Shown: positions 3,045-63,792 of the stretch, piece after piece
Layout of the letters: the number at the start of each line of letters is the position of its first letter
Numbering within the stretch: the first letter of the stretch is position 1
Notes under the pieces: model-generated
Databases searched by the model: none
Seen by the model: only the letters and a program-made list of their open reading frames with translations
Told to the model about the DNA's origin: nothing
Assembly: GCA_002478885.1 (NCBI GenBank)
Contig: DLKC01000097.1
Coordinates: forward strand, 1 to 64,000
Length of the DNA: 64,000 nucleotides
DNA from: Chitinophagaceae bacterium UBA7600
Lineage (GTDB): Bacteria > Bacteroidota > Bacteroidia > Chitinophagales > Chitinophagaceae
Reading direction: 5' to 3'
Program-made: the position numbers and the translations under genes

Positions 3045-3092
3045 TACCGGCTTTAGGTTTTCATGGCATCGGCTGTTGCGTCGCACACTTGT
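3045..3092 (+). repeat. Dispersed two-box intergenic element, copy 1
   Basis: Box A CCGGCT is at 3047-3052 and box B GTTGCGTCGCAC at 3075-3086, separated by 22 bases and followed by ACTTGT. It sits just after the terminator of the GT35 gene. ATGGCATCGGCT before box B is shared with copies 8 and 16 (31.7 and 48.5 kb). Confidence 0.85.
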
Positions 3093-3260
3093 GCGCAGGG
3101 CACTAAACGCGGCGACGCTATTTGGCGTAATTAATTCAACAGCAGCTTTTTGCTCCCATATTAATTTCTGATAAAATAACAGCGCTGATACATTCACATC
3201 AATTTTTTTTTATAATTTAAAGCCGGGTTTTGCCAGCACACACTTATAAAAACGATTGTT

Positions 3261-3593
3261 ATGTCTTCAAATACCACTGCTGTTGATACAGCCTCCTTAC
3301 GTCAATGGTTTGCCGCCAAACTTACACCACAGGCTTTGGAAGCAGAGCTCACATCAAAAGGTCTCGATGCTGAGGCTATTATCAACCATGTAAAAGCGTA
3401 TAAAAAGCTTCGTAATGCAAAGCGCCAGAATACCGGTTTTATGACCCTCGGTATCGGCGCGGTGCTAGGTTTCATAGGCTGTGTGATGGCGCTCATTAAT
3501 CCTATTCCTGAACTGCACGACTTTTTTCTATACGGCGTTACAATGGTGGCCGTGGTTGTGATATTTATCGGGTTCTACTTCATATTTGAATGA
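3261..3593 (+). CDS. Small two-helix membrane protein
   Basis: A 110-residue protein of unknown function. The N-terminal half is soluble and likely helical (residues about 8-50, rich in Leu, Ala and Lys). Two hydrophobic segments follow, at about 57-79 and 86-109, so it probably forms an inner-membrane hairpin with the N-terminus in the cytoplasm. The ATG at 3261 follows an AT-rich leader. No operon partner is evident: the preceding gene ends at a terminator and the next gene is over 300 bases away. Confidence 0.7.
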   Translation: MSSNTTAVDTASLRQWFAAKLTPQALEAELTSKGLDAEAIINHVKAYKKLRNAKRQNTGFMTLGIGAVLGFIGCVMALINPIPELHDFFLYGVTMVAVVVIFIGFYFIFE

Positions 3594-3911
3594 GGCGATC
3601 TGCAGGCTGAATATCTTCTTCTTTTACAAACAGCGCCAGACCAACATTAATCTTTTCAGAAGGCATATTTTAAATTGCTGAAGAGCGATCGAATGCTCAG
3701 GGGCTGCCGGATGGAAACGTAAAGCCCGGTGAAGCTTTGTGTGTGGGGCTGTGCCGGACTTGCAGAGAACAGCCGGAACAACAGCAGCCGGTTGCGGTGC
3801 ACCCGATAGCCCCTGAAAGCCTTACGCGATAAACCCGGAAATGGTCGCATTTGTACCGGTTAAGTCCGCGTTTATACCAGTATGTTTGTTGTTCATTTTA
3901 AAGTAACCAAC
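3594..3911. other. Gene-free stretch
   Basis: No convincing gene. A 64-codon open frame on the minus strand (3656-3850) is rich in Arg, Phe and Pro and looks like chance. Bases 3791-3802 read GTTGCGGTGCAC, 10 of 12 matching box B of the dispersed element, but there is no box A at the usual distance. This may be a decayed copy. Confidence 0.4.
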
Positions 3912-4364
3912 ATGCAAAAGATCACCCCTTTTTTATGGTACGATGGCAATGCAGAAGAAGCCGCCAACCTTTACACTTCAATTTTTAAAGACGGAAAAAT
4001 TATCAGCACTATGCCCGGCCCGGGTGGGAAACCGATGGGCTTTACCCTTGAGCTCGACGGTCAACGTTTTATTGCTTTTAACGGTGGGCCTATGTTTAAG
4101 TTTACCGAGGCTGTTTCGATGTTTGTGAACTGCGAAACGCAGGATGAGATTGACTACTATTGGGAAAGGCTTTCGGAAGGTGGGCAGAAAAGCCGCTGCG
4201 GTTGGTTGAAAGACAAATTTGGTTTGTCATGGCAAATTGTACCGCCTGTGCTTGGGGAATTGCTTGGCGACGCCGACCGCGAAAAAGCGGGGCGTGTAAT
4301 GCAGGCAATGCTGCAGATGGATAAGATTGACATCGCTTCACTCAAAGCCGCGTATGACCGGTAA
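3912..4364 (+). CDS. VOC family protein, PhnB / 3-demethylubiquinone methyltransferase-like fold
   Basis: A 150-residue glyoxalase-fold protein. The ATG at 3912 gives the usual start MQKITPFLWYDGNAEEAA; the in-frame ATG at 3882 would add ten residues before the domain. Hallmarks of this VOC subgroup are FNGGPMFKFTEAVS in the middle, a Gln/Asp-rich helix with IDYYWERLS, and CGWLKDKFGLSWQIVP near the end. Members are often misnamed 3-demethylubiquinone methyltransferase; the real substrate is generally unknown. It is a single gene whose stop faces a gene on the minus strand. Confidence 0.88.
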   Translation: MQKITPFLWYDGNAEEAANLYTSIFKDGKIISTMPGPGGKPMGFTLELDGQRFIAFNGGPMFKFTEAVSMFVNCETQDEIDYYWERLSEGGQKSRCGWLKDKFGLSWQIVPPVLGELLGDADREKAGRVMQAMLQMDKIDIASLKAAYDR

Positions 4365-4399
4365 TAATAACGTTACAGGCACAGTCCAACATTGATCAA

Positions 4400-5062
4400 C
4401 TACTTTAATTGAAGTATGGCAAAGCCAGATTCGAAAGCTGCATTGTTTTGCAGGCTGACCGCCTTACCCGATTCGATCCACTGGTAATGCCCGTCAAGCA
4501 TCAACAGGGGCTGTTGCTTTTTGTTTACGGAGATATTTACATCAGCCTTATCAAGACAAATAATGAGCAGGCCTTTTTCGGTTGCGGGCAGGGTTGTCTT
4601 TGCCATTGCCGGCAACTGCAGTTTGTAAACATTCACCTGTTCTTCATCCAGGAGCAATTTCAGCGAATCATTCTTTAGCAAAGGCGGGTGTGATAAAACC
4701 CCCTTACCGGTAAGTTCAATATCCATCACATGAAACCAGCCTGTATCTGCATTCCACACACGGTGGATCTTTTCTTTTACCAGGCTTTCATACCAGATCG
4801 TTTTGGCTGCGGGTATGGCATTCGCAGGGGGCTGCCCAAGTAACTGGCTTCCTGTTTTTGTTACGGTGTAAGAAATAAAAACAGATGGCGTACTGTGCAC
4901 ATGGTATTGAGATGTATCGCCAGGCGGAAGAAAGACATTCAATATTCTAACGAGGTCGTTTTCGTAAACGTTGTGGTGTCGCGGTTCGAAACGCACCTGC
5001 ACCTGTGCATGAACGGTAAAGACAAATAATAAAGCTGCAAAACAGCTGCTGATCTTTTGCAT
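4400..5062 (-). CDS. Exported cupin-like protein
   Basis: A 220-residue protein with a signal peptide ending near residue 19 (FTVHAQ). The early part, with NDLVRILNVFLPPGD and YHVHSTPSVF, resembles a cupin barrel that could bind a metal through the two histidines. The remainder is beta-rich and has no catalytic motif I can name. It probably acts in the periplasm. It is transcribed convergently with the VOC gene and divergently from the carboxylase genes. Function unknown. Confidence 0.7.
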   Translation of the reverse strand: MQKISSCFAALLFVFTVHAQVQVRFEPRHHNVYENDLVRILNVFLPPGDTSQYHVHSTPSVFISYTVTKTGSQLLGQPPANAIPAAKTIWYESLVKEKIHRVWNADTGWFHVMDIELTGKGVLSHPPLLKNDSLKLLLDEEQVNVYKLQLPAMAKTTLPATEKGLLIICLDKADVNISVNKKQQPLLMLDGHYQWIESGKAVSLQNNAAFESGFAILQLK

Positions 5063-5312
5063 AAACTAAAGATAATATTAAACACCGAACGTATTCACCA
5101 AATATGTGTGCCGGTGCTGCGTGTTATAGCCTACAATATTAACAGCATCTGTTTTGCTGATATTAATCATTTTTTTTAATTCGGTGTTCTTCTACCTTGC
5201 ACCTGTTTCCTGCATATAGCGACAACCCAAACGAATCGCAGATTTATTGTTTTCAACTTTGGCTGCTATTACCTGCAGGATAGATTAACTTACAACAAAA
5301 TTCAGTTGCTGT

Positions 5313-5804
5313 ATGTCAGATGAAAAAAAATCCTTTAAGGTAAAATCCAACGAGTTTGTCTTTGCCTTTGACAAGGCCGAATTAGCCGCTCTTGATATTT
5401 TTCAAAAATCACCAACCTGGTACAATCTCATTAAAGATCACAAATCAATCAACGCAACCATTGTAGACGCAAACATCGCGGAAAAAATGGTTACGGTCGA
5501 GGTCGACGGTGAGTCTTACACCGTTAACATAAAAGATGAGCTCGACCAGATGCTGGAGAAAATGGGTTTCGGCGCCAGTTCAACCCGGCACGTAAAGGAA
5601 ATAAAGGCCCCAATGCCCGGCCTTGTGTTACAGGTGTCAGTCAAAGAAGGGCAGGAGGTAAAAGAGGGAGAACGCATACTTATACTTGAAGCCATGAAAA
5701 TGGAAAACAGTATTACGCTGCATACCAACGCGACCATCAAAAAAATACGGGTCATAAACGGGCAGGCCGTTGAAAAGGGCCAGGTGCTTGTTGAACTTGA
5801 ATAA
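5313..5804 (+). CDS. Biotin carboxyl carrier protein of an acyl-CoA carboxylase
   Basis: A 163-residue carrier subunit. The C-terminal 70 residues form a biotinyl domain with APMPG and EAMKMEN; Lys129 is the expected biotinylation site. The first 90 residues are a beta-rich extension as in Bacteroidota propionyl-CoA-type carboxylase carriers. The biotin group moves carboxyl from the biotin carboxylase (next gene) to the carboxyltransferase (third gene). The gap to the carboxylase gene is 193 bases and holds a dispersed two-box element, an unusual interruption for a subunit set. Confidence 0.93.
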   Translation: MSDEKKSFKVKSNEFVFAFDKAELAALDIFQKSPTWYNLIKDHKSINATIVDANIAEKMVTVEVDGESYTVNIKDELDQMLEKMGFGASSTRHVKEIKAPMPGLVLQVSVKEGQEVKEGERILILEAMKMENSITLHTNATIKKIRVINGQAVEKGQVLVELE

Positions 5805-5836
5805 ACAAGTCCGCAAAACATTGTGAATACCTGTGT

Positions 5837-5888
5837 GCCCGGCTTTCGAACAAACATGTTGCCTCCTTGCGTCGCACACTTGTACTTC
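5837..5888 (+). repeat. Dispersed two-box intergenic element, copy 2
   Basis: Box A CCGGCT is at 5839-5844 and box B TTGCGTCGCAC at 5867-5877, followed by ACTTGTACTTC. It lies between the carrier and biotin carboxylase genes, which are probably co-transcribed, so the element would be present in the mRNA. Confidence 0.83.
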
Positions 5889-5997
5889 ATAACAATAACC
5901 GGCAGTTCATTCACCATTGTATCAGCGCTTATACATTATTGCAAAAGCAACCACTTTATTAAAGCAGCAGGAAGCTGCGTCAAAAAATACAATCACG

Positions 5998-7473: not shown

Positions 7474-7511
7474 TAAATTTACATGGCTGTTTACGCAAAA
7501 TATTTACACAT

Positions 7512-9170: not shown

Positions 9171-9200
9171 GAACGATTCCGGGTCGCACCCTTGTACTTC
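9171..9200 (+). repeat. Dispersed two-box intergenic element, degenerate copy 3
   Basis: Only the right half of box B (GTCGCAC at 9183-9189) and the tail CCTTGTACTTC survive. No box A lies at the normal distance. It sits between convergent genes. Confidence 0.55.
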
Positions 9201-9299
9201 CGGATCATTGATGAGCAGTAATGAGTTCAACGCACTAGCAACCGCCCCTAACATGATGGTCACATTATAATTCCGGAGGCGATAAGCACGGCAAAAAAA

Positions 9300-14888: not shown

Positions 14889-14970
14889 GCGGTGAAAATA
14901 CAGCGAACGGCACTAATAAAAAACTCATGCATTTTCGTGTTAGCCGCCACCTTTTTTAGAACAGTTATGC

Positions 14971-15016
14971 AGCCGGCTGTAGAACATGCATGAGGCTTTC
15001 GTTGCGTCGCACGCTT
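14971..15016 (+). repeat. Dispersed two-box intergenic element, copy 4
   Basis: Box A CCGGCT is at 14973-14978 and box B GTTGCGTCGCAC at 15001-15012 with 22 bases between. The right tail is altered. It lies between the MBL hydrolase stop codon and the helicase start on the minus strand. Confidence 0.83.
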
Positions 15017-15051
15017 CAGGTGTCAGTACAACACTGAACCATCTAAACGTT

Positions 15052-15948
15052 TTATGCACTCAACTCTTCATATGCTGCAGTAAGCGGCCTGTCAATGCCA
15101 TCCCCTTTCCATTCTTCTGCACCCGGAATAACCGTTGTTTTTAATATTTCGTCTTTTGATTTGCCGCTCCTGATCGCAGCCTCTACATAGGTGAGTGTTT
15201 TGTCTAGATAATTCCTGAAGGCTTTCAGGTCTTCGGCGTTGCCGGTTACTTCGTAACCATCGGCTGCATGTCCAAAAACATAAGTAGTTTTCTTTGGGAA
15301 TTTATCTACGGCCTTATCAAGAACAGTGATCCAGTTTTTCATGTTGGCGCCGGCGCTCCTGTCAACAAACGGATGGCGGCGGTTGAACACCAGGTCGCCC
15401 ATATGAACGATGTGTTCTTTTTCAAAATGGATCAGGGCATCACCGTTGGTATGACCTGCGCCGAAGTAATGCAAGCTGATTTTTTCAGCGCCGGTCTTCT
15501 GGCTCCAAACCGTGCCAAAAACCTGGTCGGGGTATAATTGTTTGTCTTCAGCGTTTTTCTCTTTTGCCACCCGTTGCTGGTTGGCTTTACTGTTTTCGTG
15601 TGCCAGCACATTCTGCACCAGTCCTTTAAAGGCAATATTGCCACTGGTATGGTCGCCGTGATGGTGTGTATTCATTAATAATTTGAAGGATAGGGCAGAC
15701 TGTTTCTTCAGCTCATCGATCAGGTGTTGCGATTGTTCGGGAAACTGTGAATCCACCACGATAATACCTTCTTTGTTAAACTGGAAAAGTATGGTGCCGC
15801 CCTTTTCGGTGAAGATGCCTGTTTCTTTTGTAAGCATTTTTATTTTCCAGGCCGGTTGCTGGAAGAATGCCGCCATTAATTGTTGTTTTGACAATAACAA
15901 AGCGCCTGTAGCCAGCGCTGAACTGCGCAGAAATGATTTACGGTTCAT
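15052..15948 (-). CDS. Exported MBL-fold metallo-hydrolase
   Basis: A 298-residue metallo-beta-lactamase-fold protein. The N-terminus MNRKSFLRSSALATGALLL resembles a Tat-type signal, with Arg-Lys in place of the twin arginines, so it probably works in the periplasm. The zinc motif THHHGDHTSG is clear, followed by a second-site GAGHTNGD and GDLVFNRRHP. The closest general group is the periplasmic MBL hydrolases related to subclass B3 and quinoprotein-linked enzymes; the substrate is unknown. Two-box elements flank it on both sides. Confidence 0.88.
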   Translation of the reverse strand: MNRKSFLRSSALATGALLLSKQQLMAAFFQQPAWKIKMLTKETGIFTEKGGTILFQFNKEGIIVVDSQFPEQSQHLIDELKKQSALSFKLLMNTHHHGDHTSGNIAFKGLVQNVLAHENSKANQQRVAKEKNAEDKQLYPDQVFGTVWSQKTGAEKISLHYFGAGHTNGDALIHFEKEHIVHMGDLVFNRRHPFVDRSAGANMKNWITVLDKAVDKFPKKTTYVFGHAADGYEVTGNAEDLKAFRNYLDKTLTYVEAAIRSGKSKDEILKTTVIPGAEEWKGDGIDRPLTAAYEELSA

Positions 15949-15990
15949 AGTGTGATTTTTTGTTGGTTAACCCTGGTGCTTAAAGATACA

Positions 15991-16042
15991 AAGTACAAGA
16001 GTGCGACGCAACAATGTTCCATAGAATTGGTCAGCCGGGCTC
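15991..16042 (-). repeat. Dispersed two-box intergenic element, copy 5
   Basis: Minus orientation: tail AGTACAAGA, box B complement GTGCGACGCAAC at 16001-16012, then box A complement AGCCGG at 16033-16038 after 20 bases. A second, opposite CCGGCT follows at 16049-16054. It lies upstream of the MBL-fold gene. Confidence 0.83.
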
Positions 16043-16136
16043 CTATAACCGGCTGTTGGAAACAATGATCTTACGTTGCTAAATATGGCTAAAGCGTACT
16101 TTGCAGAATATGAGATTAGAACACACTGTTGCCTAT

Positions 16137-28332: not shown

Positions 28333-28393
28333 TTTTTGGTTACCGGCTTCAAGGCCACGGAGCAGCTGCTGTTGCGTCGCACACCTGGGCTTC
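28333..28393 (+). repeat. Dispersed two-box intergenic element, copy 6 (left arm of inverted pair)
   Basis: A T-rich end, then box A CCGGCT at 28343-28348 and box B GTTGCGTCGCAC at 28371-28382 with 22 bases between. It faces copy 7, about 70 bases away, in inverted orientation. Confidence 0.88.
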
Positions 28394-28462
28394 CAAGCCC
28401 TGATCGGCAATTTCATTGATTGCCTATACCGGCGACAGCCGCAACTGCTGACGCATGTTTTA

Positions 28463-28521
28463 GAAGTACAAGTGTGCGACGCAACGAAGCTTAATAGCAG
28501 TGCTACAGCCGGGTACAAAAA
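28463..28521 (-). repeat. Dispersed two-box intergenic element, copy 7 (right arm of inverted pair)
   Basis: Tail complement GAAGTACAAGT, box B complement at 28474-28485, box A complement AGCCGG at 28507-28512, then GTACAAAAA. With copy 6 it forms a 189-bp unit with T-rich/A-rich inverted ends, like a small non-autonomous mobile element. It lies between the divergent ddl and FKBP genes. Confidence 0.88.
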
Positions 28522-28609
28522 GTCACCTATAAATGATCGCGCCGGCTGATTCGTGGTTATAATAAAAAGCAATTATTTTTCATTCCTTACTTTCGTAAAA
28601 ACTTATATC

Positions 28610-31621: not shown

Positions 31622-31686
31622 ATGCCGCAAATATAAACCAGCGATTGGAGTTTAAGATTTCAAGTTTATTGTTTCGAAGATTGGGA

Positions 31687-31738
31687 GCCCGGCTGCGGTA
31701 TTTTATGGCATCGGCTGTTGCGTCGCACTCTTGTAGGT
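31687..31738 (+). repeat. Dispersed two-box intergenic element, copy 8
   Basis: Box A CCGGCT is at 31689-31694 and box B GTTGCGTCGCAC at 31717-31728 with 22 bases between, then TCTTGTAGGTTC. It lies upstream of the ABC-F gene and contains ATGGCATCGGCT like copies 1 and 16. Confidence 0.86.
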
Positions 31739-31803
31739 TCGGAACTTTGCGCAGCATCCTGAATTTTTAAGGTAGGTTTCACGAGTCGCAGGATACATTT
31801 TAG

Positions 31804-36183: not shown

Positions 36184-36936
36184 ATGAAGCATTGCTACAA
36201 GTTATTGCAGAGGCTTGCAAACATTATGCTGCTGAGTTTATTCCTGGCCTGCACTATAAGCAGCAACGCCCAAAAAATAAAACTGTTTGGATATGTGCTT
36301 GACAGTTCAACCTATTCGCCCGTAAACAATGCGGCTGTCACCAATGTGAACACCAACAAAAAAATCAACACCAATGAACGAGGACAGTTTCAGCTTGTTG
36401 CTTCGCCTGGCGACCGCCTGTTTGTTTCAGTAGAAGGCTACCATTTTCAGCATTTGAAATTCAGCATGATTATGCAGGATACCATTGTTATTTACCTCGC
36501 ACAACTTCCGCATGTGTTGCCTGGCGTTACCGTTACAACTACCGGCTACACCAAATACCAGCACGACAGTGTGCGGCGCCGGCAAGAGTTTGCCGATGAC
36601 ATGATCGCAAAAAAATACCCGCTGCTAAAGCAAAACAATACCAACTCTGCCGGGCTAACTTTCAACCTTGATTATTTCAGTAGCAGGGAAAAATCAAAAC
36701 GCAGGGAAGTGAAAGCTTTTGATGAGCGTGAAAAAGATGCTTACGTCAACTTTCGTTTTTCGCCTGACTTGGTGAAATCATACACGGGGTTTACCGGCGA
36801 CACACTCAATAAATTTCGCATGAGATATTATCCCGATTACGATTGGCTGAGAGCCAACACCGACGATGAGGCAATACTATATTACATTAACGACAAGCTG
36901 AAAGGATTTTATGCCGACATAGATAAAAAGAAGTAG
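36184..36936 (+). CDS. Carboxypeptidase-regulatory-like (CarboxypepD_reg) exported protein
   Basis: A 250-residue protein whose start at 36184 (MKHCYKLLQRLANI) gives a signal peptide ending SSNAQ. Residues about 32-105 form a regulatory-like beta sandwich (FGYVLDSSTYSPVNNAAV, NERGQFQLVASPGD) of the kind that precedes TonB-dependent receptors, but no receptor follows here. The rest is charged and rich in Tyr and Asp. This is a common Bacteroidota family of unknown function, likely periplasmic. Confidence 0.8.
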   Translation: MKHCYKLLQRLANIMLLSLFLACTISSNAQKIKLFGYVLDSSTYSPVNNAAVTNVNTNKKINTNERGQFQLVASPGDRLFVSVEGYHFQHLKFSMIMQDTIVIYLAQLPHVLPGVTVTTTGYTKYQHDSVRRRQEFADDMIAKKYPLLKQNNTNSAGLTFNLDYFSSREKSKRREVKAFDEREKDAYVNFRFSPDLVKSYTGFTGDTLNKFRMRYYPDYDWLRANTDDEAILYYINDKLKGFYADIDKKK

Positions 36937-36943
36937 TTAGTAT

Positions 36944-36990
36944 CAGGCTTTCACCTTAATGGCATCGCCTGTTGCGTCGCACTCTTGAAC
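36944..36990 (+). repeat. Dispersed two-box intergenic element, copy 10
   Basis: Box A-like CAGGCT is at 36944-36949 and box B GTTGCGTCGCAC at 36971-36982, with 21 bases between containing ATGGCATCGCCT. It starts eight bases after the preceding stop codon, between convergent genes. Confidence 0.83.
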
Positions 36991-37068
36991 ATTCGGCTCG
37001 TAGCCAGGCAAGAGCTCAGTGCTTTTTCATGATTCGCAAAGAAGCACTTTTGCTTGCTCGCCAAAAAC

Positions 37069-39018: not shown

Positions 39019-39111
39019 CACTGCGAACAGGGCGTTATTGAGGCCTCCGAAAAAGTAATGGCAGTAAATTAAATTCACGAACGTCCCGCACTGCGTTGCC
39101 CGGAGATATGA

Positions 39112-39177
39112 TGTACAAGGGTGCGACGCAACAGGTGTTGCTGGTTGCACAATTGCCGGGCACCAAATAATCAAAAA
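39112..39177 (-). repeat. Dispersed two-box intergenic element, copy 11
   Basis: Tail complement TGTACAAGG, box B complement GTGCGACGCAAC at 39121-39132, 21 bases, then TGCCGG (box A complement) at 39154-39159 and an A-rich end. It lies between the Asp-box propeller and carboxyltransferase genes. Confidence 0.84.
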
Positions 39178-41975: not shown

Positions 41976-42066
41976 CCGACTAGTTCCGATGCGTAGTGTT
42001 ATTTGTCCCGGAGAGTATACGGGATTTTTTTATAAGTTTTTGTTCACTGCTGATAAGCAGCCTGGC

Positions 42067-42126
42067 GTACAAGTGTGCGACGCAACCGGAGATGCAGCAC
42101 AGTACTCCAGCTTGGCTCCAAAAAAT
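42067..42126 (-). repeat. Dispersed two-box intergenic element, copy 12
   Basis: Tail complement GTACAAGT, box B complement at 42075-42086, 22 bases, then AGCTTG (altered box A) at 42109-42114 and GGCTCCAAAAAA. The outer CTCCAAAAAA end is shared with copies 15 and 18. Confidence 0.83.
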
Positions 42127-43880: not shown

Positions 43881-43889
43881 CTTATTATG

Positions 43890-43931
43890 TTACCGGCTGT
43901 AACCCAAATGGCATCGCCTGTTGCCACGCTC
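43890..43931 (+). repeat. Dispersed two-box intergenic element, degenerate copy 13
   Basis: Box A CCGGCT is at 43893-43898; box B is altered to GTTGCCACGCTC at 43920-43931, at the normal spacing of 21 bases. The ATGGCATCGCCT segment before box B is the same as in copy 10. It lies 10 bases after the CotH stop codon. Confidence 0.72.
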
Positions 43932-45492: not shown

Positions 45493-45529
45493 GTGAACCC
45501 TGGCAATCATTGCCCAATGTCTTGTTGCT

Positions 45530-45586
45530 GTACAAAAGTGCGACGCAACCGATGCTTAATGGCTGCACTGCTGCATGGCCCCGAAA
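45530..45586 (-). repeat. Dispersed two-box intergenic element, copy 14
   Basis: Tail complement TGTACAAAA, box B complement GTGCGACGCAAC at 45538-45549, 22 bases, then TGCATGG where box A is expected and an A-rich end. It lies between convergent genes, ending just before the stop codon of the oxidoreductase. Confidence 0.82.
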
Positions 45587-45593
45587 AACTTTA

Positions 45594-46715: not shown

Positions 46716-46808
46716 GTGGTGGTATTAAAAATAACGTGGATGAATTGATTGCATTTTAGATGCAACACTTTATTGTCGCTTTTGTATTGCTGTTGAATAT
46801 TGTTCTGA

Positions 46809-46868
46809 AAGTACAAGAGTGCGACGCAACGAGTGCTTCATCATGTTTCCTAAGCCAGGCTCCAAAAA
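46809..46868 (-). repeat. Dispersed two-box intergenic element, copy 15
   Basis: Tail complement AGTACAAGA, box B complement at 46819-46830, 22 bases, then AGCCAGG at 46853-46859 and CTCCAAAAAAA. It ends within three bases of the PGM1-like gene's stop codon at 46871. Confidence 0.85.
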
Positions 46869-48433: not shown

Positions 48434-48529
48434 ATGCTGCAGCTTTTTTGAAAAGATAATACAATCATACGAAACAATATTTTAGGCTGAATAAATTTTA
48501 TTCAGGTAGAATGTTAATGATGTTTTTGT

Positions 48530-48580
48530 TCCCGGCTTTAGTGCTACTGGCATCGGCTCTTGCGTCGCACTCTTCAACGT
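48530..48580 (+). repeat. Dispersed two-box intergenic element, copy 16
   Basis: Box A CCGGCT is at 48532-48537 and box B CTTGCGTCGCAC at 48559-48570 with 21 bases between, then TCTTCAACG. It lies between divergent genes. Confidence 0.84.
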
Positions 48581-48713
48581 TCCCCAAAAAATAGGCAATA
48601 ATTTTGCTGATTTAACCAAAGATACTCCGGCATGAGGAGGATCATCAATCGCAGTTTTGTATAAGAATAAATTTGTGATGGATTTTATTTATTAAGCTTT
48701 TAAAAACTTATCT

Positions 48714-50625: not shown

Positions 50626-50668
50626 CGTATCTTAAATAGATTGGTTGTTTTGCTGCATGAAGAAAAGA

Positions 50669-50730
50669 AAGTACAAGAGTGCGACGCAACCAACGCGCAA
50701 TAGCGCCTATACAGTTTGAAACAAAAAAAT
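50669..50730 (-). repeat. Dispersed two-box intergenic element, copy 17
   Basis: Tail complement AAGTACAAGA, box B complement at 50679-50690, 22 bases, then AGTTTG (altered box A) at 50713-50718 and an A-rich end. It sits between the oxidoreductase and isomerase genes, probably inside their transcript. Confidence 0.82.
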
Positions 50731-50749: not shown

Positions 50750-51613
50750 ATGGAAAAGATAAACAGGAGATCATTTCTTACAAAGGCCGCTGTGGGTACC
50801 GGCGCTACGCTTGCGTTAACCCAATTGCCCGGGACAATTCTTGCTGCTGCTAATGCCAATGATATGCCGATTGGCTTTCAATCGTGGACCGTGAAAGAAA
50901 TGCTGAGTAAGGATTTTGAAGGCACATTAAAAGTAATGGCTGGCATGGGTTATAAAATGATAGAGATGTGCTCACCTAAAGGGTATGCGCAAATAGGCTT
51001 TGGCAAATTTGCCGCAATGAAAACAGCTGATATAAAAACTACCATCAATAATGCGGGCCTCACCTGTCCAAGCTGCCATTTTGGATCTGCAGAATTTGCC
51101 GATGATAAGATCGATGAAACCATTCAGTTCGCAAAGGAACTAGGGTTAACCCAAATGATCTGCTCAACTTTTTGGCTTCCTAAGACCGCCACGCTGAATG
51201 ATTATCTCGCATCGGCTGACAAATTGAACAAGGCGGCGGACAAGATAAAAGCGGCGGGCATGCAGGCAGGCTTTCACAACCACGAGTTTGAGTTTGCACA
51301 ACTGGAAGGAGAACTTATTTACGATGCCTTAATGAAGCGGTTTGATGCGAATCTTGTTAAGATGCAGTTTCAAACAGAGGTGATCAATCTTGGATACAAA
51401 GCTGCTGAATATTTTAAAAAATATCCCGGGAGATTTATTTCATCGCATTTATCAGATTGGACCGCTGACAAAAAAGAAATTGCCATTGGGCAAGGGGTGA
51501 TAGACTGGAAGGAATTTTTTGCCGCCGCCAAAACCGGTGGCGTTAAAAACTTTTTTGTGGAAATGAATTTCGACAAATTCAAAGACAGCGCTGCCTTTAT
51601 ACATAGCATGTAA
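50750..51613 (+). CDS. Tat-exported sugar phosphate isomerase/epimerase-family protein
   Basis: A 287-residue TIM-barrel protein of the AP_endonuc_2/xylose-isomerase-like superfamily. The twin-arginine signal is NRRSFLTKAAVGTGATLAL, with cleavage near ILAAANA. Family features include YKMIEMCSPKGYAQ, the metal-binding GFHNHEFEFAQLEG and SSHLSDWTADKKEI, and a final FFVEMNFD. Periplasmic members act with Gfo/Idh/MocA oxidoreductases in keto-sugar chemistry, matching its neighbour. Metal ligands appear intact (His, Asp, Glu). Confidence 0.9.
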   Translation: MEKINRRSFLTKAAVGTGATLALTQLPGTILAAANANDMPIGFQSWTVKEMLSKDFEGTLKVMAGMGYKMIEMCSPKGYAQIGFGKFAAMKTADIKTTINNAGLTCPSCHFGSAEFADDKIDETIQFAKELGLTQMICSTFWLPKTATLNDYLASADKLNKAADKIKAAGMQAGFHNHEFEFAQLEGELIYDALMKRFDANLVKMQFQTEVINLGYKAAEYFKKYPGRFISSHLSDWTADKKEIAIGQGVIDWKEFFAAAKTGGVKNFFVEMNFDKFKDSAAFIHSM

Positions 51614-51744
51614 TTTTTGGTGCCCAACAGTAGAATATATGGCGTCGTTCCTTGCGTCGCACTTTTTGACTTCAGCAATTCAGTTGGTACATTTTTGTGC
51701 TTTCCTGTACTGCGTGACGAAACCGGATTCGCTCCAAAAAATAC
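51614..51744 (+). repeat. Dispersed two-box intergenic element, copy 18, with degenerate inverted right arm
   Basis: TTTTTGG end, CCCAAC at the box A position (51623-51628), and box B CTTGCGTCGCAC at 51651-51662. About 80 bases later comes GTACTGCGTGACGAAACCGG and GCTCCAAAAAATA, a weak inverted copy. Together they resemble the paired unit at 28.4 kb. It starts at the stop codon of the isomerase. Confidence 0.75.
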
Positions 51745-57917: not shown

Positions 57918-57959
57918 AACCAGGTGCCGGCCTCAGTTTTTTGAGGCCGGCACCTGGTT
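57918..57959 (+). terminator. 18-bp perfect hairpin terminator overlapping a two-box element
   Basis: Left arm 57918-57935, loop GTTTTT, right arm 57942-57959, with a T-rich tract after it. The right arm contains CCGGCA exactly where box A of element copy 19 is expected. Confidence 0.9.
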
Positions 57960-57996
57960 CATTTTTACGCTATTGTTGCGTCGCACTCTTGTACTG
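57947..57996 (+). repeat. Dispersed two-box intergenic element, copy 19
   Basis: Box A-like CCGGCA is at 57947-57952, inside the terminator arm. Box B GTTGCGTCGCAC is at 57975-57986 after 22 bases, then TCTTGTACTGC. Confidence 0.83.
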
Positions 57997-58098
57997 CAAC
58001 AACTGCCGCATCAATTTGTCTTCGTTTTTCTAGTTGGCGCTGTAACCATATCTTTATCGCCGTTAACAACACGTTCATTTCGCAGAAATCAGTTCAAA

Positions 58099-58839
58099 AT
58101 GGAAGTACAGTCACAGGTTGCAGTTCAAATATTCATTCCTTGTTTTGTCGATCAGCTATATCCAACTGTTGCTTTCAACATGGTTAAGGTATTGCGCAAA
58201 GCGGGTTGCCTTGTTACGTATAACAGCAATCAAACCTGTTGTGGGCAGCCAGCATTTAATGCAGGTTTTTGGAACGAATCGAAAGATATTTGCGCAAAGT
58301 TCATCAAAGACTTCAGTGGACCCGGATACATAGTTGCGCCAAGTGCAAGCTGTGTTGGTTTTGTAAAAAATTATTACAATACACTTTTCGATAATTCATC
58401 GCTGCATAACGATGTAAAAAACCTCGGCGAAAACATCTTCGAGTTTTCCGACTTTCTCGTTAACGTATTAAAGATGGATGATTTTGGTGCGGTGCTGCCG
58501 GGCCTCGCAACTTACCATGATAGCTGTGCGGCATTAAGAGAATGTAAAATAAAAGAAGAGCCAAGAAAATTATTGGCAAACGTAAAAGGATTACAACTGA
58601 CAGAAATGAATGATGTAGAAACCTGTTGCGGTTTCGGCGGAACATTTGCCGTAAAATTTGAACCGATCAGCATTGCCATGGCCGATCAAAAAGTCGCAAA
58701 TGCCACTGCAACCGGGGCCGACTACCTCATTAGCACAGACATGAGTTGTCTTATGCATCTCGATGGTTATATCAGGAACAAACAAGCTGCCATACGTGTA
58801 ATGCATATTGCCGATGTACTTGCAAGCGGATGGGAGTAA
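58099..58839 (+). CDS. LutA-like (Fe-S)-binding oxidoreductase subunit
   Basis: A 246-residue protein of the LutA/CCG-domain family, which in other bacteria forms the lactate-utilisation complex LutABC. I start it at the ATG at 58099 (MEVQSQVAVQIFIPCFVDQL), matching the family's length; 57973 would add 42 residues reading through the repeat element. The two CCG-type cysteine motifs are TCCGQPAFNAG and ETCCGFGGTFAVKF, and IFIPCFVDQLYP and TYHDSCAALRE are also typical. LutB and LutC genes are not in the window. Confidence 0.92.
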   Translation: MEVQSQVAVQIFIPCFVDQLYPTVAFNMVKVLRKAGCLVTYNSNQTCCGQPAFNAGFWNESKDICAKFIKDFSGPGYIVAPSASCVGFVKNYYNTLFDNSSLHNDVKNLGENIFEFSDFLVNVLKMDDFGAVLPGLATYHDSCAALRECKIKEEPRKLLANVKGLQLTEMNDVETCCGFGGTFAVKFEPISIAMADQKVANATATGADYLISTDMSCLMHLDGYIRNKQAAIRVMHIADVLASGWE

Positions 58840-58888
58840 TTTCGGCCGGAAAGATTAGCGCCCTGTTTATTGCTGACCTCGGAACGGA

Positions 58889-58950
58889 ACGTTGCAGTGT
58901 GCGACGCAACGAAGACGCCGGAATAGCTGAAGCCGGGTACATAAATTATT
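58889..58950 (-). repeat. Dispersed two-box intergenic element, copy 20
   Basis: Box B complement GTGCGACGCAAC at 58899-58910, 20 bases, then box A complement AGCCGG at 58931-58936 and GTACATAAATTA. The tail before box B is altered. It lies between the LutA and SMC genes. Confidence 0.83.
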
Positions 58951-59123: not shown

Positions 59124-62100
59124 GTGAGATTAAAATCATTAGAAATAAAAGGCTTCAAAAGTTTTGCTGACAAAACAGTAGTAAACTTTGACGAAGGCAT
59201 CACCGGAATTATCGGGCCTAATGGCTGCGGTAAGAGTAATATTATTGATTCCATTCGCTGGGTAATAGGAGAGCAGAAGATATCTGCGCTTCGTAGTGAA
59301 AATCTTGAAGCGCTCGTGTTTAATGGAAGCAAAACGCGCACTGCCAGCGGTTTGGCAGAAGTGAGCCTGACCTTCGAAAATACGCGGAACCTGCTTCCTA
59401 CCGAATTCAGTACTGTTACAGTTACAAGACGTTTTTTTAAAAATGGCGAAAGCGAATACCGGCTGAATGATGTGCAATGCCGTTTGAAAGATATTCATAA
59501 TCTTTTTATGGATACGGGTGTCTCAAATGACAGCTACGCCATTATTGAGCTTGGCATGGTTGATGACATTATTAAAGACAAAGACAACAGCCGTCGCCGT
59601 ATGCTTGAGCAGGCAGCCGGTATAACCATTTACAAAACCCGCAAAAAAGAAGCGAAGAATAAACTCGATCTTACCGAGCAAGACCTTAACCGCATCGAAG
59701 ACCTGTTGTTCGAAATAAACAACCAGTTGAAAATGCTGGAGAGCCAGGCCAAGAAAGCTGAAAAGTACTTTGAGATAAAGAAAGATTATAAGGAGATTGC
59801 CGTTGAGCTTGCAAAGGCCGCGTTGGAAGGTTTTAACATCACTTATAAACAACTTAATGAACAGCAGGATGATGAGGTTAATAAGAGAACTGTGCTGGAA
59901 GCAGAAATAGCCACGGAAGAGGCTGCAATAGAACAGGAGAAGGTTGGGTTTATAGAAAAGGAACGCGCTTTGCAAGGGATGCAACAAGAGTTTAATCTTT
60001 TTCAGCAGGATGTACGTTCAAAAGAGAATGAAAAAAACCTTGCTTCACAGAAACTACATTTTCTGAAAGACAAAGAGGCCGGGTTAAAAGATTTTCTTGG
60101 TAAGGCAGAAGGCCAATTGAAGGGGATACAAGATTCTATTGAATTTTCCCATTTACAGGTGGGTGAAGAAGAATCAAGACTTGCTGAGTTGCTGGAAAAG
60201 CTTGAAACAATAAAAGAAGAAACCGGCGATAAACGTATTCAATTTGAACAAAAGAGAGCCGCAGTTGATGGTTCGAGAAGTAAATATCAACAGGTACAAC
60301 GCAACCAGTTTGATGCGGAAAAGAAAGTTGCAGTTGCTGATACATCCATCCAAAACCTGCAAAGAGCCCATGCGCAGTTGACCGATGAAAAGGAAAACCG
60401 TTCGGCTCAGTTGCAGCAACTGGAAAAAGAACTAGCCGAAAAAGAAGAATTGCTCGAAAATAAAAGAAATGATCTGCGCGAGTTACAGGAACACCATGAA
60501 AGAACCAAGGAGCAAATACTGGAAACGCAAAGCCAGCTGGAAGTGTTACGCAATCAGCTCGCCGAGGAAAACAGAAGACTTGATGCAAAGCGCAATGAAC
60601 ACGATTTGCTGAAGAGCCTTATTGATTCCATGGAAGGCTACCCGGAAAGTGTAAAATTCCTGCACAAAAATCCAAATTGGAATAATAACGCGCCCATACT
60701 TTCAGATATTATTTATGTAAACGAAGCATATCGAACAGCGGTTGAAAATGTTTTAGAGCCTTACCTGAGCTATTATGTTGTAAATAATTTAAAGGAAGGA
60801 TTGCAGGCTGTTCAACTGTTGGATGAAAACAAAAAAGGGAAAGCGAATTTTTTTATCCTTGACAGGATTGGTGAAAACGAGACGATTACCAAGCAACCGG
60901 AGTTTACAATACGTGCGCTGGATGTAATTGAGGTTGACGACGAATATCGTGAACTCGCTGAATATCTCTTAGGTAACGTGTACATCGCAGAAAATGATGA
61001 AGCGATCAATACTTCAACCAACGCTGTTATACTGGAGAAACATGGCAAATATGTAAAGGGTAAATATGCCCTTAGCGGAGGCAGTGTTGGATTGTTTGAA
61101 GGCAAGAAAATAGGCCGTGCAAAGAATCTTGAAAAAATTCATGACGAGATTGTTTTACAAGACGCGGTGGTGAATGCATTGAAAGCGGAGATCAAACAAA
61201 AACATAATGAAGTAATTGGTTTCAATGAGCAATTGAAAGAAAACCTGATCAGGCAGACCGAAAATGAAATCAATCAATTAACCAACCAGGTTTTTGCTGC
61301 AAAAAATAAGGCTGAAAACCTGCAAGCTGCCCAGCAAAACGCCACACAAAGAATAGAAGATCTCGAATCAAGATTACAGGATGACCAGGATGGTATCGCC
61401 ACAACCAGAGAAGCACTTGCCGAGCTGAGTAACGAACTTCAGGCAATACTTGAAGCTACAAAAGCTGCAGAACAGGAATTTCAATCAGCGGAACAGGAGT
61501 TTGCATTTGCGAATGCGAAATACAATGAAACCAATCTTCTTGTAACAAGGCAACAAAGCAAACTCGTTGCGATCAAGCAGGAACTGGTTTTCAAGCAAAA
61601 CCAACTGACCGAGCTCGGTAATCAGGTTGAATCAAATACCCAACAATTAAGCAACGCAGCTCAACTGATAGAGGAGGGCCAGCAGGCCTTGATCGACAGC
61701 GAAGCATTACTTGTGCAGATGCTACGCCGCAAAGAAGAGGAACAACAAAAGCTAAACGAAGCAGACCAGGCATACTATAACCTGCGCAATGCGTTGCAGG
61801 CAAAAGAAAGTGAGTTGCGCCATAAAGTAAAAAGCAGGGAGATTGTTGAACATCTACTAAGCGAAATTAAGGATCGCCTTAATGAATTAAAACTGCAACT
61901 GGCAGGCATGAAAGAAAGATTGCATGTTGAATTCAAGATAGCGCTGGATGACATTCTTGATCAACCAAGAACCAGTACAACGCCATTGGAAGAACTGCAG
62001 GCAACAAGTGACAGGATGAGAAAACGGCTGGAAAATATTGGGGAGGTCAATCCCACGGCTATCGAAGCTTTCCAGGAAATGCGGAAACGTTATGAGTTTA

Positions 62101-62642
62101 TTCTTGAACAAAAGAATGATCTTGTTAACGCCAAGGAAAGCCTTTTGCAAACCATACAAGAAGTCGAAGCTACAGCCAACCAGCAATTTCTCGATACTTT
62201 CAATAAGGTCAGAGAAAATTTTCAAAGGGTATTCAAAGCATTATTTACTGAAGAAGATACAGCAGACATGATCCTTGACAACCCGGATAACCTTGCTGAA
62301 ACCGGCATCGACATTGTAGCAAAGCCTAAAGGTAAGAGGCCATCATCCATTAACCAGTTAAGCGGCGGAGAAAAAACACTCACGGCCACAGCCTTATTAT
62401 TTTCCATTTACTTGATTAAGCCTGCACCGTTCTGTATTCTAGATGAAGTCGATGCTCCGCTCGATGATGCAAATGTTGGCAAGTTCACACAAATGATCAA
62501 AAAATTCAGTGAGAATTCGCAGTTCATTATTGTTACGCATAATAAAATGACCATGGGCACTGTTGACGTAATATATGGCGTAACCATGCAGGAACCTGGC
62601 GTAAGCAAGCTTGTACCGGTCGATTTCCGCAGCCTGAATTAA
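59124..62642 (+). CDS. smc: Chromosome segregation protein SMC
   Basis: A 1172-residue SMC ATPase that forms condensin rings for chromosome packing. The N-terminal Walker A is GIIGPNGCGKSNIID (about residues 28-42), followed by a long coiled coil, a hinge near 500-660 (GYPESVKFLHKNPNW, ENVLEPYLSYYVVNN), a second coiled coil, and the C-terminal signature LSGGEKTLTATALLF with Walker B FCILDEVDAPLDDANV. Full length and intact. It starts at 59124 (MRLKSLEIKGFKSFADKT), the typical family N-terminus. A terminator follows. Confidence 0.96.
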   Translation: MRLKSLEIKGFKSFADKTVVNFDEGITGIIGPNGCGKSNIIDSIRWVIGEQKISALRSENLEALVFNGSKTRTASGLAEVSLTFENTRNLLPTEFSTVTVTRRFFKNGESEYRLNDVQCRLKDIHNLFMDTGVSNDSYAIIELGMVDDIIKDKDNSRRRMLEQAAGITIYKTRKKEAKNKLDLTEQDLNRIEDLLFEINNQLKMLESQAKKAEKYFEIKKDYKEIAVELAKAALEGFNITYKQLNEQQDDEVNKRTVLEAEIATEEAAIEQEKVGFIEKERALQGMQQEFNLFQQDVRSKENEKNLASQKLHFLKDKEAGLKDFLGKAEGQLKGIQDSIEFSHLQVGEEESRLAELLEKLETIKEETGDKRIQFEQKRAAVDGSRSKYQQVQRNQFDAEKKVAVADTSIQNLQRAHAQLTDEKENRSAQLQQLEKELAEKEELLENKRNDLRELQEHHERTKEQILETQSQLEVLRNQLAEENRRLDAKRNEHDLLKSLIDSMEGYPESVKFLHKNPNWNNNAPILSDIIYVNEAYRTAVENVLEPYLSYYVVNNLKEGLQAVQLLDENKKGKANFFILDRIGENETITKQPEFTIRALDVIEVDDEYRELAEYLLGNVYIAENDEAINTSTNAVILEKHGKYVKGKYALSGGSVGLFEGKKIGRAKNLEKIHDEIVLQDAVVNALKAEIKQKHNEVIGFNEQLKENLIRQTENEINQLTNQVFAAKNKAENLQAAQQNATQRIEDLESRLQDDQDGIATTREALAELSNELQAILEATKAAEQEFQSAEQEFAFANAKYNETNLLVTRQQSKLVAIKQELVFKQNQLTELGNQVESNTQQLSNAAQLIEEGQQALIDSEALLVQMLRRKEEEQQKLNEADQAYYNLRNALQAKESELRHKVKSREIVEHLLSEIKDRLNELKLQLAGMKERLHVEFKIALDDILDQPRTSTTPLEELQATSDRMRKRLENIGEVNPTAIEAFQEMRKRYEFILEQKNDLVNAKESLLQTIQEVEATANQQFLDTFNKVRENFQRVFKALFTEEDTADMILDNPDNLAETGIDIVAKPKGKRPSSINQLSGGEKTLTATALLFSIYLIKPAPFCILDEVDAPLDDANVGKFTQMIKKFSENSQFIIVTHNKMTMGTVDVIYGVTMQEPGVSKLVPVDFRSLN

Positions 62643-62664
62643 TCTTTAAAAACATTTTTATTAT

Positions 62665-62709: not shown

Positions 62710-62730
62710 TAACGCTCATCTCTTTATATT

Positions 62731-63168
62731 TTGTTTAAACCAGCACTCGTTTTATATGTTGTTTGCTTCGGCTTATACATCCTGTTTAGCAGGCAACCAG
62801 ACTATTTTGATGGAGAAATGGGTAAGGCGGTCATTCATTTTTTACAAGACACGCTAAGCAAAGAGTTAGAGCCATTTGCTATTTATTCGGTCGAGGGCAA
62901 AGAATACCGTATAAAAGCCGGCTATTTTTTCAGGAATTTTGAGGAGGGCCAGCGAGTTAATATTATCTATGAGCTTTCACAGCCTGCAAAAGGCGCTGTT
63001 TACAATTTTTGGGGATACTGGATTACCTGGGGCGAAACTCTTTTTTCCCTTTTTCTCATGACCGCCTTATACAAAATATCTCATGCAGTCACAAAAAATC
63101 CATCGCCTGAATCGCTGGTAGAACAAATGGAGTTTAAGCCGGCTAAAAGAAGAAAATACGAAGACTAA
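62731..63168 (+). CDS. Two-helix membrane protein, DUF3592-like topology
   Basis: A 145-residue protein starting at a TTG at 62731, the first usable start after an in-frame stop at 62710. An ATG at 62819 would remove the first membrane helix. Hydrophobic segments at about 3-19 and 93-115 flank a soluble region of about 75 residues (YSVEGKEYRIKAGYFF, GQRVNIIYE), a layout like DUF3592 proteins. The C-terminus is basic and cytoplasmic. It is 16 bases upstream of the DUF486 gene, so the two are probably co-transcribed. Confidence 0.7.
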   Translation: MFKPALVLYVVCFGLYILFSRQPDYFDGEMGKAVIHFLQDTLSKELEPFAIYSVEGKEYRIKAGYFFRNFEEGQRVNIIYELSQPAKGAVYNFWGYWITWGETLFSLFLMTALYKISHAVTKNPSPESLVEQMEFKPAKRRKYED

Positions 63169-63184
63169 TCTTAAAACGCCCGAT

Positions 63185-63514
63185 ATGCGCACTGTTATTT
63201 TACTTGTTTTTTCTAACGTCTTTATGACGTTTGCCTGGTACGGAAATCTAAAAGATCCAAGCCTGCCTTTATGGAAAGCGGTACTCATAAGCTGGGGAAT
63301 CGCTTTTTTTGAATATTGTTTAATGGTACCTGCTAACAGGGCTGGGTTTGAAGATGGATTCAATGGTTTCCAGTTGAAAATGATCCAGGAAGTAATTACC
63401 CTTACCGTATTCACAGTATTTGCTGTGCTGTATCTTAAAGAGCCATTTCAGTGGAAGTACCTTGTGAGCTTCGGTTTCCTTCTCGGTGCAGTTTATTTCG
63501 CTTTCAAAAAGTAA
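63185..63514 (+). CDS. DUF486 (DMT superfamily) membrane protein
   Basis: A 109-residue protein with four hydrophobic segments, of the DUF486/DMT-like family of small inner-membrane proteins. Features are SNVFMTFAWYGNLK at the start, SWGIAFFEYCLMVPANR, and FAVLYLKEPFQWKYLVSFGFLLGAVYF at the end. Homologues are small multidrug-resistance-like proteins, but no transport function is proven. It is probably co-transcribed with the preceding membrane protein. Confidence 0.9.
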   Translation: MRTVILLVFSNVFMTFAWYGNLKDPSLPLWKAVLISWGIAFFEYCLMVPANRAGFEDGFNGFQLKMIQEVITLTVFTVFAVLYLKEPFQWKYLVSFGFLLGAVYFAFKK

Positions 63515-63530
63515 AATGCCGTAAAAAAAT

Positions 63531-63590
63531 AAGGGCATCAAGCTCTCGCAATGACGCCCTGTTTTAACCCTGCTGCTAGTTTATAGTAAG
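63531..63590 (-). repeat. Direct repeat with hairpin, copy 1
   Basis: This 60-base segment recurs at 63662-63721 with one mismatch. It holds a hairpin AGGGCATCA / TGACGCCCT which on the minus strand ends in a T run, so it may serve as a terminator for the minus-strand gene at the right edge. Confidence 0.8.
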
Positions 63591-63661
63591 TAAATACTAA
63601 TACGTGGTTACAAATTTTCAAAACTCCCTTCTCGACCCCGGCATTTACAGATTTTTAAATA

Positions 63662-63721
63662 AAGGGCATCATGCTCTCGCAATGACGCCCTGTTTTAACC
63701 CTGCTGCTAGTTTATAGTAAG
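63662..63721 (-). repeat. Direct repeat with hairpin, copy 2
   Basis: A 59 of 60 match to 63531-63590, in direct orientation 131 bases apart, including the same hairpin. The similarity continues a few bases beyond (ATACTAA). It looks like a recent tandem-type duplication of a terminator region. Confidence 0.8.
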
Positions 63722-63740
63722 TGATACTAATTCTTTTGTC

Positions 63741-63792
63741 CCGGGCATCTCATTTTGCTTCAGCTTCTGTTGCGTCGCACTCTTGTACTTCA
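63741..63792 (+). repeat. Dispersed two-box intergenic element, copy 21
   Basis: Box A-like CCGGGC is at 63741-63746 and box B GTTGCGTCGCAC at 63769-63780 after 22 bases, then TCTTGTACTTC. It lies between convergent genes at the right edge of the window. Confidence 0.84.

What the first reader, a model, noticed from the sequence alone, without database searches (positions are those of the whole stretch)
3045..63792. A family of about 21 two-box intergenic elements with near-constant spacing
Seen: about 18 good and 3 decayed copies of CCGGCT, 20-22 variable bases, GTTGCGTCGCAC and a TCTTGTACTT-like tail, often with a T-rich outer end. Box B starts are near 3075, 5866, 15001, 28371, 31717, 36971, 48559, 51651, 57975 and 63769 on plus, and 16001, 28474, 39121, 42075, 45538, 46819, 50679 and 58899 on minus. 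Decayed copies are near 9183, 35401 and 43920. All lie between genes. The constant 27-28 base distance between box starts, kept while the spacer drifts, suggests selection on both boxes, as for a protein-binding site or a small mobile element. Inference: a REP/MITE-like family mobilised by an enzyme encoded elsewhere, or an mRNA 3'-end signal. I do not know this family from the literature.
Basis: partly seen in the sequence, partly recalled or inferred. Interest (0 to 1): 0.9.

Follow-up and report, generated by a model that had tools for sequence, protein, structure and literature searches.

The report
Alternating intergenic DNA sites, 1,400 copies
A group of bacteria carries hundreds to two thousand copies of a short DNA sign between its genes; at least some species keep the signs at the same places over long times, with neighbouring signs mostly pointing opposite ways, which hints at an undescribed way of organising a bacterial chromosome.

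Summary
The core TTGCGTCGCAC occurs 1,367 times in this genome; the same pattern read backwards occurs once. It sits in a ~78-bp element (T-run, GC box, variable spacer, core, CTTGTAC tail). In held stretches of five genomes 254 of 254 exact copies are intergenic. Copy number in the family is patchy, 0 to 2,170.

(1) A second core type, TTGTGTCACTC, broadly rises and falls with the first. (2) Between two species of one genus, 10 of 16 exact-core elements at conserved gene junctions have a counterpart of the same strand and type, although the flanks have turned over. (3) Neighbouring solitary elements alternate in strand: 182 of 222, against 110 in context-matched shuffles, maximum 137. Two smaller samples (8 of 13, 7 of 14) do not show this.

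Tests of a RAYT link, RNA folding, terminator, uptake signal and mobile gene cargo did not support them; a mobile origin remains open.

Best reading: double-stranded sites of an unidentified protein, born as inverted pairs and kept in alternating order. My listed literature searches found no description.

The parts
3037..3114 (+). element (span = profile columns -39 to +38), core S1 at 3076; its T-run doubles as the tail of a terminator-like hairpin
5828..5905 (+). element, core S1 at 5867, between a biotin-carrier gene (5313-5804) and the next gene
9183..9219 (+). weak copy, right half only (18.8 bits)
14963..15040 (+). element; forms a + gene - bracket with 15973-16050 around gene 15052-15837
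15973..16050 (-). element, partner of 14963-15040
28333..28410 (+). element, first arm of a direct tail-to-tail pair
28446..28523 (-). element, second arm of the pair
31679..31756 (+). element
36933..37010 (+). element abutting the stop codon of 36226-36936; the next element (-) follows after two genes
39093..39170 (-). element, opposite strand to 36933-37010
42047..42124 (-). element
43882..43924 (+). left half of an S3-type element (10.7 bits); its core TTGCCACGCTC starts at 43921
45510..45587 (-). element between convergent genes
46791..46868 (-). element, in sense directly behind gene 46871-48433
48521..48598 (+). element; next element (-) at 50651-50728
50651..50728 (-). element with a poor A box
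51613..51690 (+). element starting at the stop codon of 50750-51613
57937..58014 (+). element whose left half is replaced by a terminator-like hairpin; brackets gene 58180-58839 with 58871-58948
58871..58948 (-). element upstream of the SMC gene 59124-62642
63731..63808 (+). element

Best explanation
The element is a double-stranded DNA site of about 78 bp read by an unidentified sequence-specific, probably dimeric, DNA-binding protein. The near-palindrome TGCGTCGCA is the main contact; the CTTGTAC tail, GC box and T-run are weaker contacts. Sites arose as inverted, tail-to-tail pairs that entered intergenic DNA, often right behind a stop codon, and some were later separated by genes or rearrangements. 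The host keeps many of them: sites with intact cores persist at the same gene junctions. Neighbouring sites are kept in opposite orientation over distances up to about 3 kb, as expected if the protein bridges neighbouring sites and so divides the chromosome into small loops. Shown: the family, its intergenic location, retention of type and strand at matching junctions of one species pair, alternation in three genomes, size limit of tail-to-tail neighbours. Inferred: the protein, the bridging, the loops, the birth as pairs.
For: Copy number and control. Profile with a sharp ~78-bp footprint. 254 of 254 S1 and 70 of 71 S2 copies intergenic in held stretches of five genomes. G140 against G058: 22 conserved junctions with 60 bp or more of spacer; by profile 9 have elements in both, 11 in neither, 2 in G140 only (by hand, one-sided p about 1e-4). 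By exact core, 10 of 16 G140 elements at conserved junctions have a G058 counterpart of the same strand and type, 1 faces a variant, 5 nothing; 11 of 11 G058 elements have a same-strand partner. Spacer columns -24 to -13 are 39% alike in these pairs (random pairs 30%), columns 19-32 39% (random 38%). Alternation 182 of 222 against a mean of 110.4, maximum 137, in 2,000 context-matched shuffles; G140 79 of 85, G058 31 of 36, G000 54 of 70. Tail-to-tail neighbours under 3 kb in 222 of 231. No RNA structure and retention of antisense copies point to DNA.
Against: No protein found; PF01797, PF00239 and PF01548 do not follow copy number. Alternation is not seen in G069 (7 of 14) or G148 (8 of 13). 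Junction retention rests on one genus pair; elements were found by their core or by a profile dominated by it, so the 0.98 core identity of matched pairs is by construction and lost cores count as absent. Some cores hold a 23-base or longer hairpin at their centre, which a rigid dimer site should not tolerate. Within-genus contrasts (G102 385 copies, G003 none) show that the system is dispensable.
Confidence: 0.4

Rival explanations
1. A MITE/BIME-like mobile family with long inverted ends, moved by an enzyme not recognised here. Solitary elements are split pairs; the core is kept because the enzyme needs it or because interiors are re-copied.
For: Patchy copy number between species of one genus. 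Right-side similarity between loci far exceeds left-side: 215 against 12 pairs of 50 bp or more at 80% or more. Twelve loci from G148, G207, G069 and G140 share an interior (BLAST identity 76-95%) while their outer halves differ, the break being at the cores (the loci were picked for similarity to this stretch, so only the breaks are informative). Element inside a small inverted-repeat unit in G171, with a third copy broken directly behind the core. In genus g25 a pair in one species is found as separate halves at different junctions in another.
Against: 537 of 584 profile hits keep an exact 10-bp core, though a profile trained on exact cores under-counts damaged ones. Type and strand are retained at matching junctions. 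No near-identical copies among 109 in this genome (best pair 74%). No candidate enzyme follows copy number.
Confidence: 0.3
2. Sites of a site-specific recombinase: direct repeats are purged because recombination between them deletes genes, inverted repeats survive, and interiors are exchanged between loci at the core.
For: Few same-strand solitary neighbours within 3 kb (19 of 161). Breaks at cores. S1 and S2 differ at facing columns around the dyad, as incompatible recombination sites do (analogy recalled). A rearrangement between + and - elements in g25.
Against: Serine recombinases (PF00239) are not found in G000, G140, G058, G148, G025, G102 and G067, all rich in copies. Bracketed genes are not less syntenic than others (17 of 19 against 63 of 94, approximate). 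Tail-to-tail and head-to-head neighbours differ in size range, which purging alone does not explain. Tyrosine recombinases were not searched.
Confidence: 0.14
3. A transcription terminator or mRNA 3'-end element.
For: In sense behind a gene, the element often begins at the stop codon: 77 of 181 within about 10 bp; core 36-46 bp behind the stop in 67 of the 106 cases within 70 bp.
Against: 155 of 333 copies are antisense to the upstream gene; 20 of 107 lie between divergent genes. No structure. Hairpins directly before the T-run are rare: 12 of 269 elements with a T-run (4.5%) against 108 of 4,036 other intergenic T-runs (2.7%). Does not predict alternation.
Confidence: 0.1
4. A DNA uptake sequence maintained by biased transformation.
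For: High copy number, dialect-like types, inverted pairs.
Against: 254 of 254 S1 copies intergenic, whereas 47-70% of uptake sequences in five Pasteurellaceae genomes lie in coding DNA (PMC2346458, passages). Does not predict alternation.
Confidence: 0.04

Closest known systems
REP/BIME elements of enterobacteria and GTAG-tagged REPs with RAYT transposases
   Same: Many short intergenic copies, inverted pairs, patchy between species
   Different: No hairpin in the common types, no associated Y1 gene found, retention of type and strand at matching junctions, alternation of neighbours
CGTC-tagged REPs (PMC3733652, passages read)
   Same: The core contains CGTC; reported also from Bacteroidetes; no dedicated transposase known; dimers common
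   Different: Those have an 8-9 bp stem with a 4-5 base loop behind the tag and also occur inside genes; here CGTC sits inside a 9-bp near-palindrome and nothing folds
DNA uptake sequences of Neisseriaceae and Pasteurellaceae
   Same: Copy number, dialects, inverted pairs
   Different: Intergenic only in what I examined, ~78 bp, alternating
RUP, BOX, Correia-type MITEs (recalled, not tested)
   Same: Short non-coding intergenic units with inverted ends
   Different: Here the inner core, not the outer end, is conserved; most loci are solitary halves
CTCF sites of animal chromosomes (recalled)
   Same: Oriented sites with a preference for facing neighbours
   Different: Different domain of life, scale of 0.06-3 kb, no known protein; an analogy only

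Membership tests
REP (RAYT-associated) | palindromic stem-loop in each copy | tested here: not met
   RNAalifold of 109 copies finds only 3 bp; mean z -0.00 sense and -0.14 antisense for 120 sampled copies; only rare S5-like copies carry a hairpin
REP (RAYT-associated) | Y1 transposase gene flanked by the repeat | tested here: not met
   G140 has no PF01797 match; 12 Y1 loci read, none with inverted copies close on both sides, L114 with one copy 25 bp behind the gene; L114 and L116 carry GCCCCGGAGGGGC repeats. Weak class-2-like Y1 hits were not followed
REP (CGTC-tagged) | unpaired CGTC tag plus 8-9 bp stem | tested here: not met
   definition from passages
MITE | terminal inverted repeats | tested here: met
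   for paired copies only: neighbours closer than 250 bp are tail-to-tail in 78 of 86; most loci are solitary (322 of 453)
MITE | clean insertion with target-site duplication | tested here: inconclusive
   spacers of the compared species no longer align
DNA uptake sequence | occurs in coding DNA as well | tested here: not met
   254 of 254 S1 intergenic
DNA uptake sequence | preferential uptake | not testable with these tools
   needs transformation assays
Intrinsic terminator | GC hairpin followed by T-run | tested here: not met
   12 of 269 elements with a T-run have a hairpin before it, control 108 of 4,036
Known RNA family | match to an Rfam model | tested here: not met
   0 matches at gathering scores in the window

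The most novel reading that the evidence does not exclude
An oriented site grammar of bacterial chromosomes: one to two thousand intergenic sites of two or more exclusive types, kept by selection and ordered so that neighbours face alternate ways within about 3 kb, read by an unknown bridging protein that folds the chromosome into gene-sized loops; whole lineages gain or lose it.
Probability: 0.25. Interest if true: 0.95.

Novelty: new variant of a known kind. Interest (0 to 1): 0.75.

Why it matters
If the reading holds, a bacterial lineage marks roughly half of its larger gene spacers (109 elements, 12 close pairs, 204 spacers of 80 bp or more in 378 kb) with oriented sites that evolution retains in alternating order. 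That would give a countable sequence rule for fine-scale chromosome folding and a direct handle, the core, to fish out the protein. Even on the mobile-element reading, alternation of strand along a chromosome and retention of subtype at matching junctions are unusual and testable. The patchy distribution provides natural knock-outs: species of one genus with hundreds of copies and with none.

Tried and rejected
REP with its own Y1 transposase: not supported (see above); the Bacteroidetes Y1 subclass with 'atypical' flanking structures mentioned in PMC6006769 (passages) was not tested separately. Serine recombinase and IS110 transposase as partner: presence does not follow copy number. RNA structure: alifold (16), covariation (14, 59; the listed top signals are columns within one half shifted by one-base indels, none joins left and right halves), z-scores (52). 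Intrinsic terminator next to the T-run. Small unannotated genes ending at antisense elements: 13 of 155 against 67 of 620 controls. Genes between + and - elements as mobile cargo: I held this for a while because bracketed genes looked like units and because upstream of the SMC gene three genomes have different bracketed genes. One search went against it: orthologue pairs with a bracketed member are syntenic in 17 of 19, others in 63 of 94 (p 0.056, opposite direction), and the DnaJ case proved syntenic. At least two pairs are listed twice, so its counts are approximate. Local duplication of neighbours: left-half identity within close tail-to-tail pairs equals random (0.39 against 0.40); two same-strand pairs of G140 are the exception at 0.71. 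Element upstream of SMC: of 80 loci 65 have no element at all; in five genomes, window included, a minus element lies there, but types differ (S1 in two, S2 in three) and the upstream genes that could be read differ, so I drew nothing from it. Literature: exact-letter searches (1 and 24 papers, of which 20 of 24 were listed, none on this by title) and topic searches found no description; the library holds only open-licence papers. From PMC3733652, PMC6006769 and PMC2346458 I saw passages; all other papers only in listings.

Dropped before counts: elements near ends of stretches; orthologue pairs within 3 kb of an end or without an element on one side; junctions with under 60 bp of spacer (29 reduced to 22). 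Search listings were capped or long; counts used are the whole-genome counts, not the listed places. One search used filters to pick core interruptions, so it is not a full census.
Full report
What is there. The 11-mer TTGCGTCGCAC occurs 1,367 times in the 5.47-Mb genome of the window (665 on one strand, 702 on the other); the same pattern read backwards occurs once. A profile of 109 copies from 378 kb shows one element from about -39 to +38 around the first T of the core: a T-run (88% T at -36), CC-S-G-S at -29 to -25, a variable spacer, a weak GGCATC or TTAAGC block at -10 to -6, the core, CTTGTAC or CTTCARC at +12 to +18, and a weak CAGCAA block at +33 to +38. Columns beyond carry little information. 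Copies have a median identity of 49% over 80 columns, core included; the best pair of 109 is 74%.

Types. Besides S1 (TTGCGTCGCAC) there is S2 (TTGTGTCACTC), 397 exact copies here, with the same kind of left half. The two differ at columns that face each other across the dyad, and at one more. Rarer types have TTGC-N-ACGCTC (S3) or TTGCGTCGCAA (S4). In S5 a 23-base hairpin-forming stretch sits at the dyad; it has 26 matches in this genome and none in 12 relatives tested. All 20 copies read lie at a core position, some with a decayed core; one of them shows compensating changes in the stem. G148 has another hairpin at the same spot (two loci).

Where. By core position, exact S1 copies are intergenic in 254 of 254 cases in held stretches of five genomes (109 of them here), S2 in 70 of 71 (gene calls are from my own script, coding fraction 0.72-0.81; 9 of the 109 elements overlap a called gene by some bases). 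Orientation to genes is mixed: 178 of 333 in sense behind a gene, 155 antisense. In sense the element often begins at the stop codon: core 36-46 bp behind the stop in 67 of the 106 cases within 70 bp.

Spread. In 244 genomes of the family, drawn from a larger group, the 11-mer is found in 167, mostly as a few copies. Counts above 900 occur in G000, G025, G058, G140, G069, G148 and G207. Within one genus counts can be 955, 3 and 1 (g26), 385 and 0 (g4), or 172, 0 and 9 (g5). In 40 genomes S2 counts broadly follow S1, but the ratio varies, for instance 749 S2 to 924 S1 in G058, 61 to 955 in G025 and 1 to 68 in G010. Named relatives are mostly labelled Chitinophagaceae or its genera.

Retention. 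I compared 215 kb each of G140 and G058, one genus, with reciprocal best proteins at a median 80% identity. Of 29 conserved gene adjacencies, 22 have a spacer of 60 bp or more. By profile, 9 carry elements in both, 11 in neither, 2 in G140 only. By exact core, G140 has 16 elements at conserved junctions: 10 have a G058 counterpart of the same strand and type, 1 faces a variant, 5 nothing. G058 has 11: 10 matched as above, 1 facing a variant of the same strand. In two matched S1 pairs one member is of the S4 type. The elements were found by their core or by a profile dominated by it, so the 98% core identity of the pairs is by construction, and a lost core counts as an absent element. What is informative is that most exact cores persist at their junction while the surroundings do not: columns -24 to -13 are 39% alike (random pairs of the same type 30%) and columns 19-32 39% (random 38%). 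This is the main evidence for selection and rests on one genus pair. G148 against G207 gives 2 of 3 elements retained, one of them with a changed core.

Order. Neighbours closer than 250 bp are tail-to-tail in 78 of 86 cases. Over all consecutive elements in the held stretches the counts are +- 231, -+ 229, ++ 54, -- 56; tail-to-tail (+-) neighbours lie within 3 kb in 222 of 231. To exclude an effect of close pairs I kept pairs as units and shuffled solitary elements: 332 alternating of 440, mean 242.4, maximum 275 in 2,000. To exclude an effect of gene context I called strands from exact cores and shuffled only among elements with the same flanking gene strands and near/far classes: 182 of 222, mean 110.4, maximum 137; within 3 kb 142 of 161, mean 80.2, maximum 100. 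By genome: G140 79 of 85, G058 31 of 36, G000 54 of 70, G148 8 of 13, G069 7 of 14. The last two give no support. In G140 close pairs are mostly mixed S1/S2 (41 of 63, 16 S1/S1, 6 with a variant), in G000 not (8 of 26).

Interiors. Core-to-core lengths of pairs start at 62 bp. Twelve loci of G148, G207, G069 and G140, picked because they resemble one interior, share it at 76-95% while outer halves differ, with the break at the cores. Unselected, similarity to the right of the core is far more common than to the left (215 against 12 strong pairs), though low-complexity stretches in interiors contribute. In genus g25 one species (G120) has a + - pair between blocks L and R; G024 and G189 have L with a + element next to another gene (the core of G024 is altered), G024 has R with a - element elsewhere, and G237 has no element at either place. 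Solitary elements can thus be separated halves of pairs, or pairs can be joined halves.

What it is not. No folding. No Rfam match in the window. Copy number does not follow Y1 transposases, serine recombinases or IS110 enzymes. Genes between + and - elements look ordinary by their sequences (my reading) and are not less syntenic. Uptake sequences lie in genes at 47-70% in five Pasteurellaceae genomes (passages of PMC2346458).

Mechanism. Strand-neutral placement, lack of RNA structure, retention of a near-palindromic core and alternating order are best explained by a protein that binds double-stranded DNA and joins neighbouring sites in inverted arrangement. The protein and the joining are inference. 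A mobile family with an unknown enzyme is the closest rival and may also be the origin; the two do not exclude each other. I put 0.4 on the first and 0.3 on the second; the corrections made on re-checking did not change these odds.

Novelty. As a kind, it belongs with short interspersed intergenic elements, hence 'new variant of a known kind'. Alternation and retained dialects at matching junctions are, by the searches and to my knowledge, not described. The library held is open-licence only.

Noticed in passing
L114 and L116 (Y1 gene loci of G207 and G148): Y1 transposase genes lie among repeats TTTGCCCCGGAGGGGCAACCT..TTTGTAGAAA, which look like their own REP family; in G000 (L115) TTTTGTCCC..GGGACGA..AAGC units follow the gene.
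   Followed up: partly
G000, 26 places; L223-L242: A 23-base hairpin CGATAGTGCCGGCTTATCCGGCA; 20 of 20 copies read lie at the dyad of an element core, and it was found only in this genome among 13 searched; six of seven copies in the held stretches lie on contig C5.
   Followed up: partly
L049 and L091 (G148): Another hairpin, with CCCCGA and TCGGGG arms, sits at the same dyad of a core in a different genus.
   Followed up: no
L062:5816-5979 and 18716-18879 (G171): A small unit with outer inverted repeats TCAATGCC..TTTAGTTAAGC carries a whole element; a third copy is broken directly behind the core.
   Followed up: partly
L110 near 7300 and L049 near 250: Tandem GTGAAAAATCAC repeats upstream of orthologous genes in two species.
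   Followed up: no
L243 (G024): An unrelated small palindrome-like insert (TTTTTTATTGCCACGAATT...CGTGGCTAATAA) directly behind an element, absent from the matching place in G189.
   Followed up: no
window:57900-57970: A long perfect hairpin (GTGCCGGCCTCA / TGAGGCCGGCAC) replaces the left half of the element at 57937-58014.
   Followed up: no
interiors of pairs in G148, G207, G069, G140: Shared TTTAGCTATTAGCTAACAGCC..GGCTAATAGCTA hairpin-like sequence between two inverted elements.
   Followed up: partly
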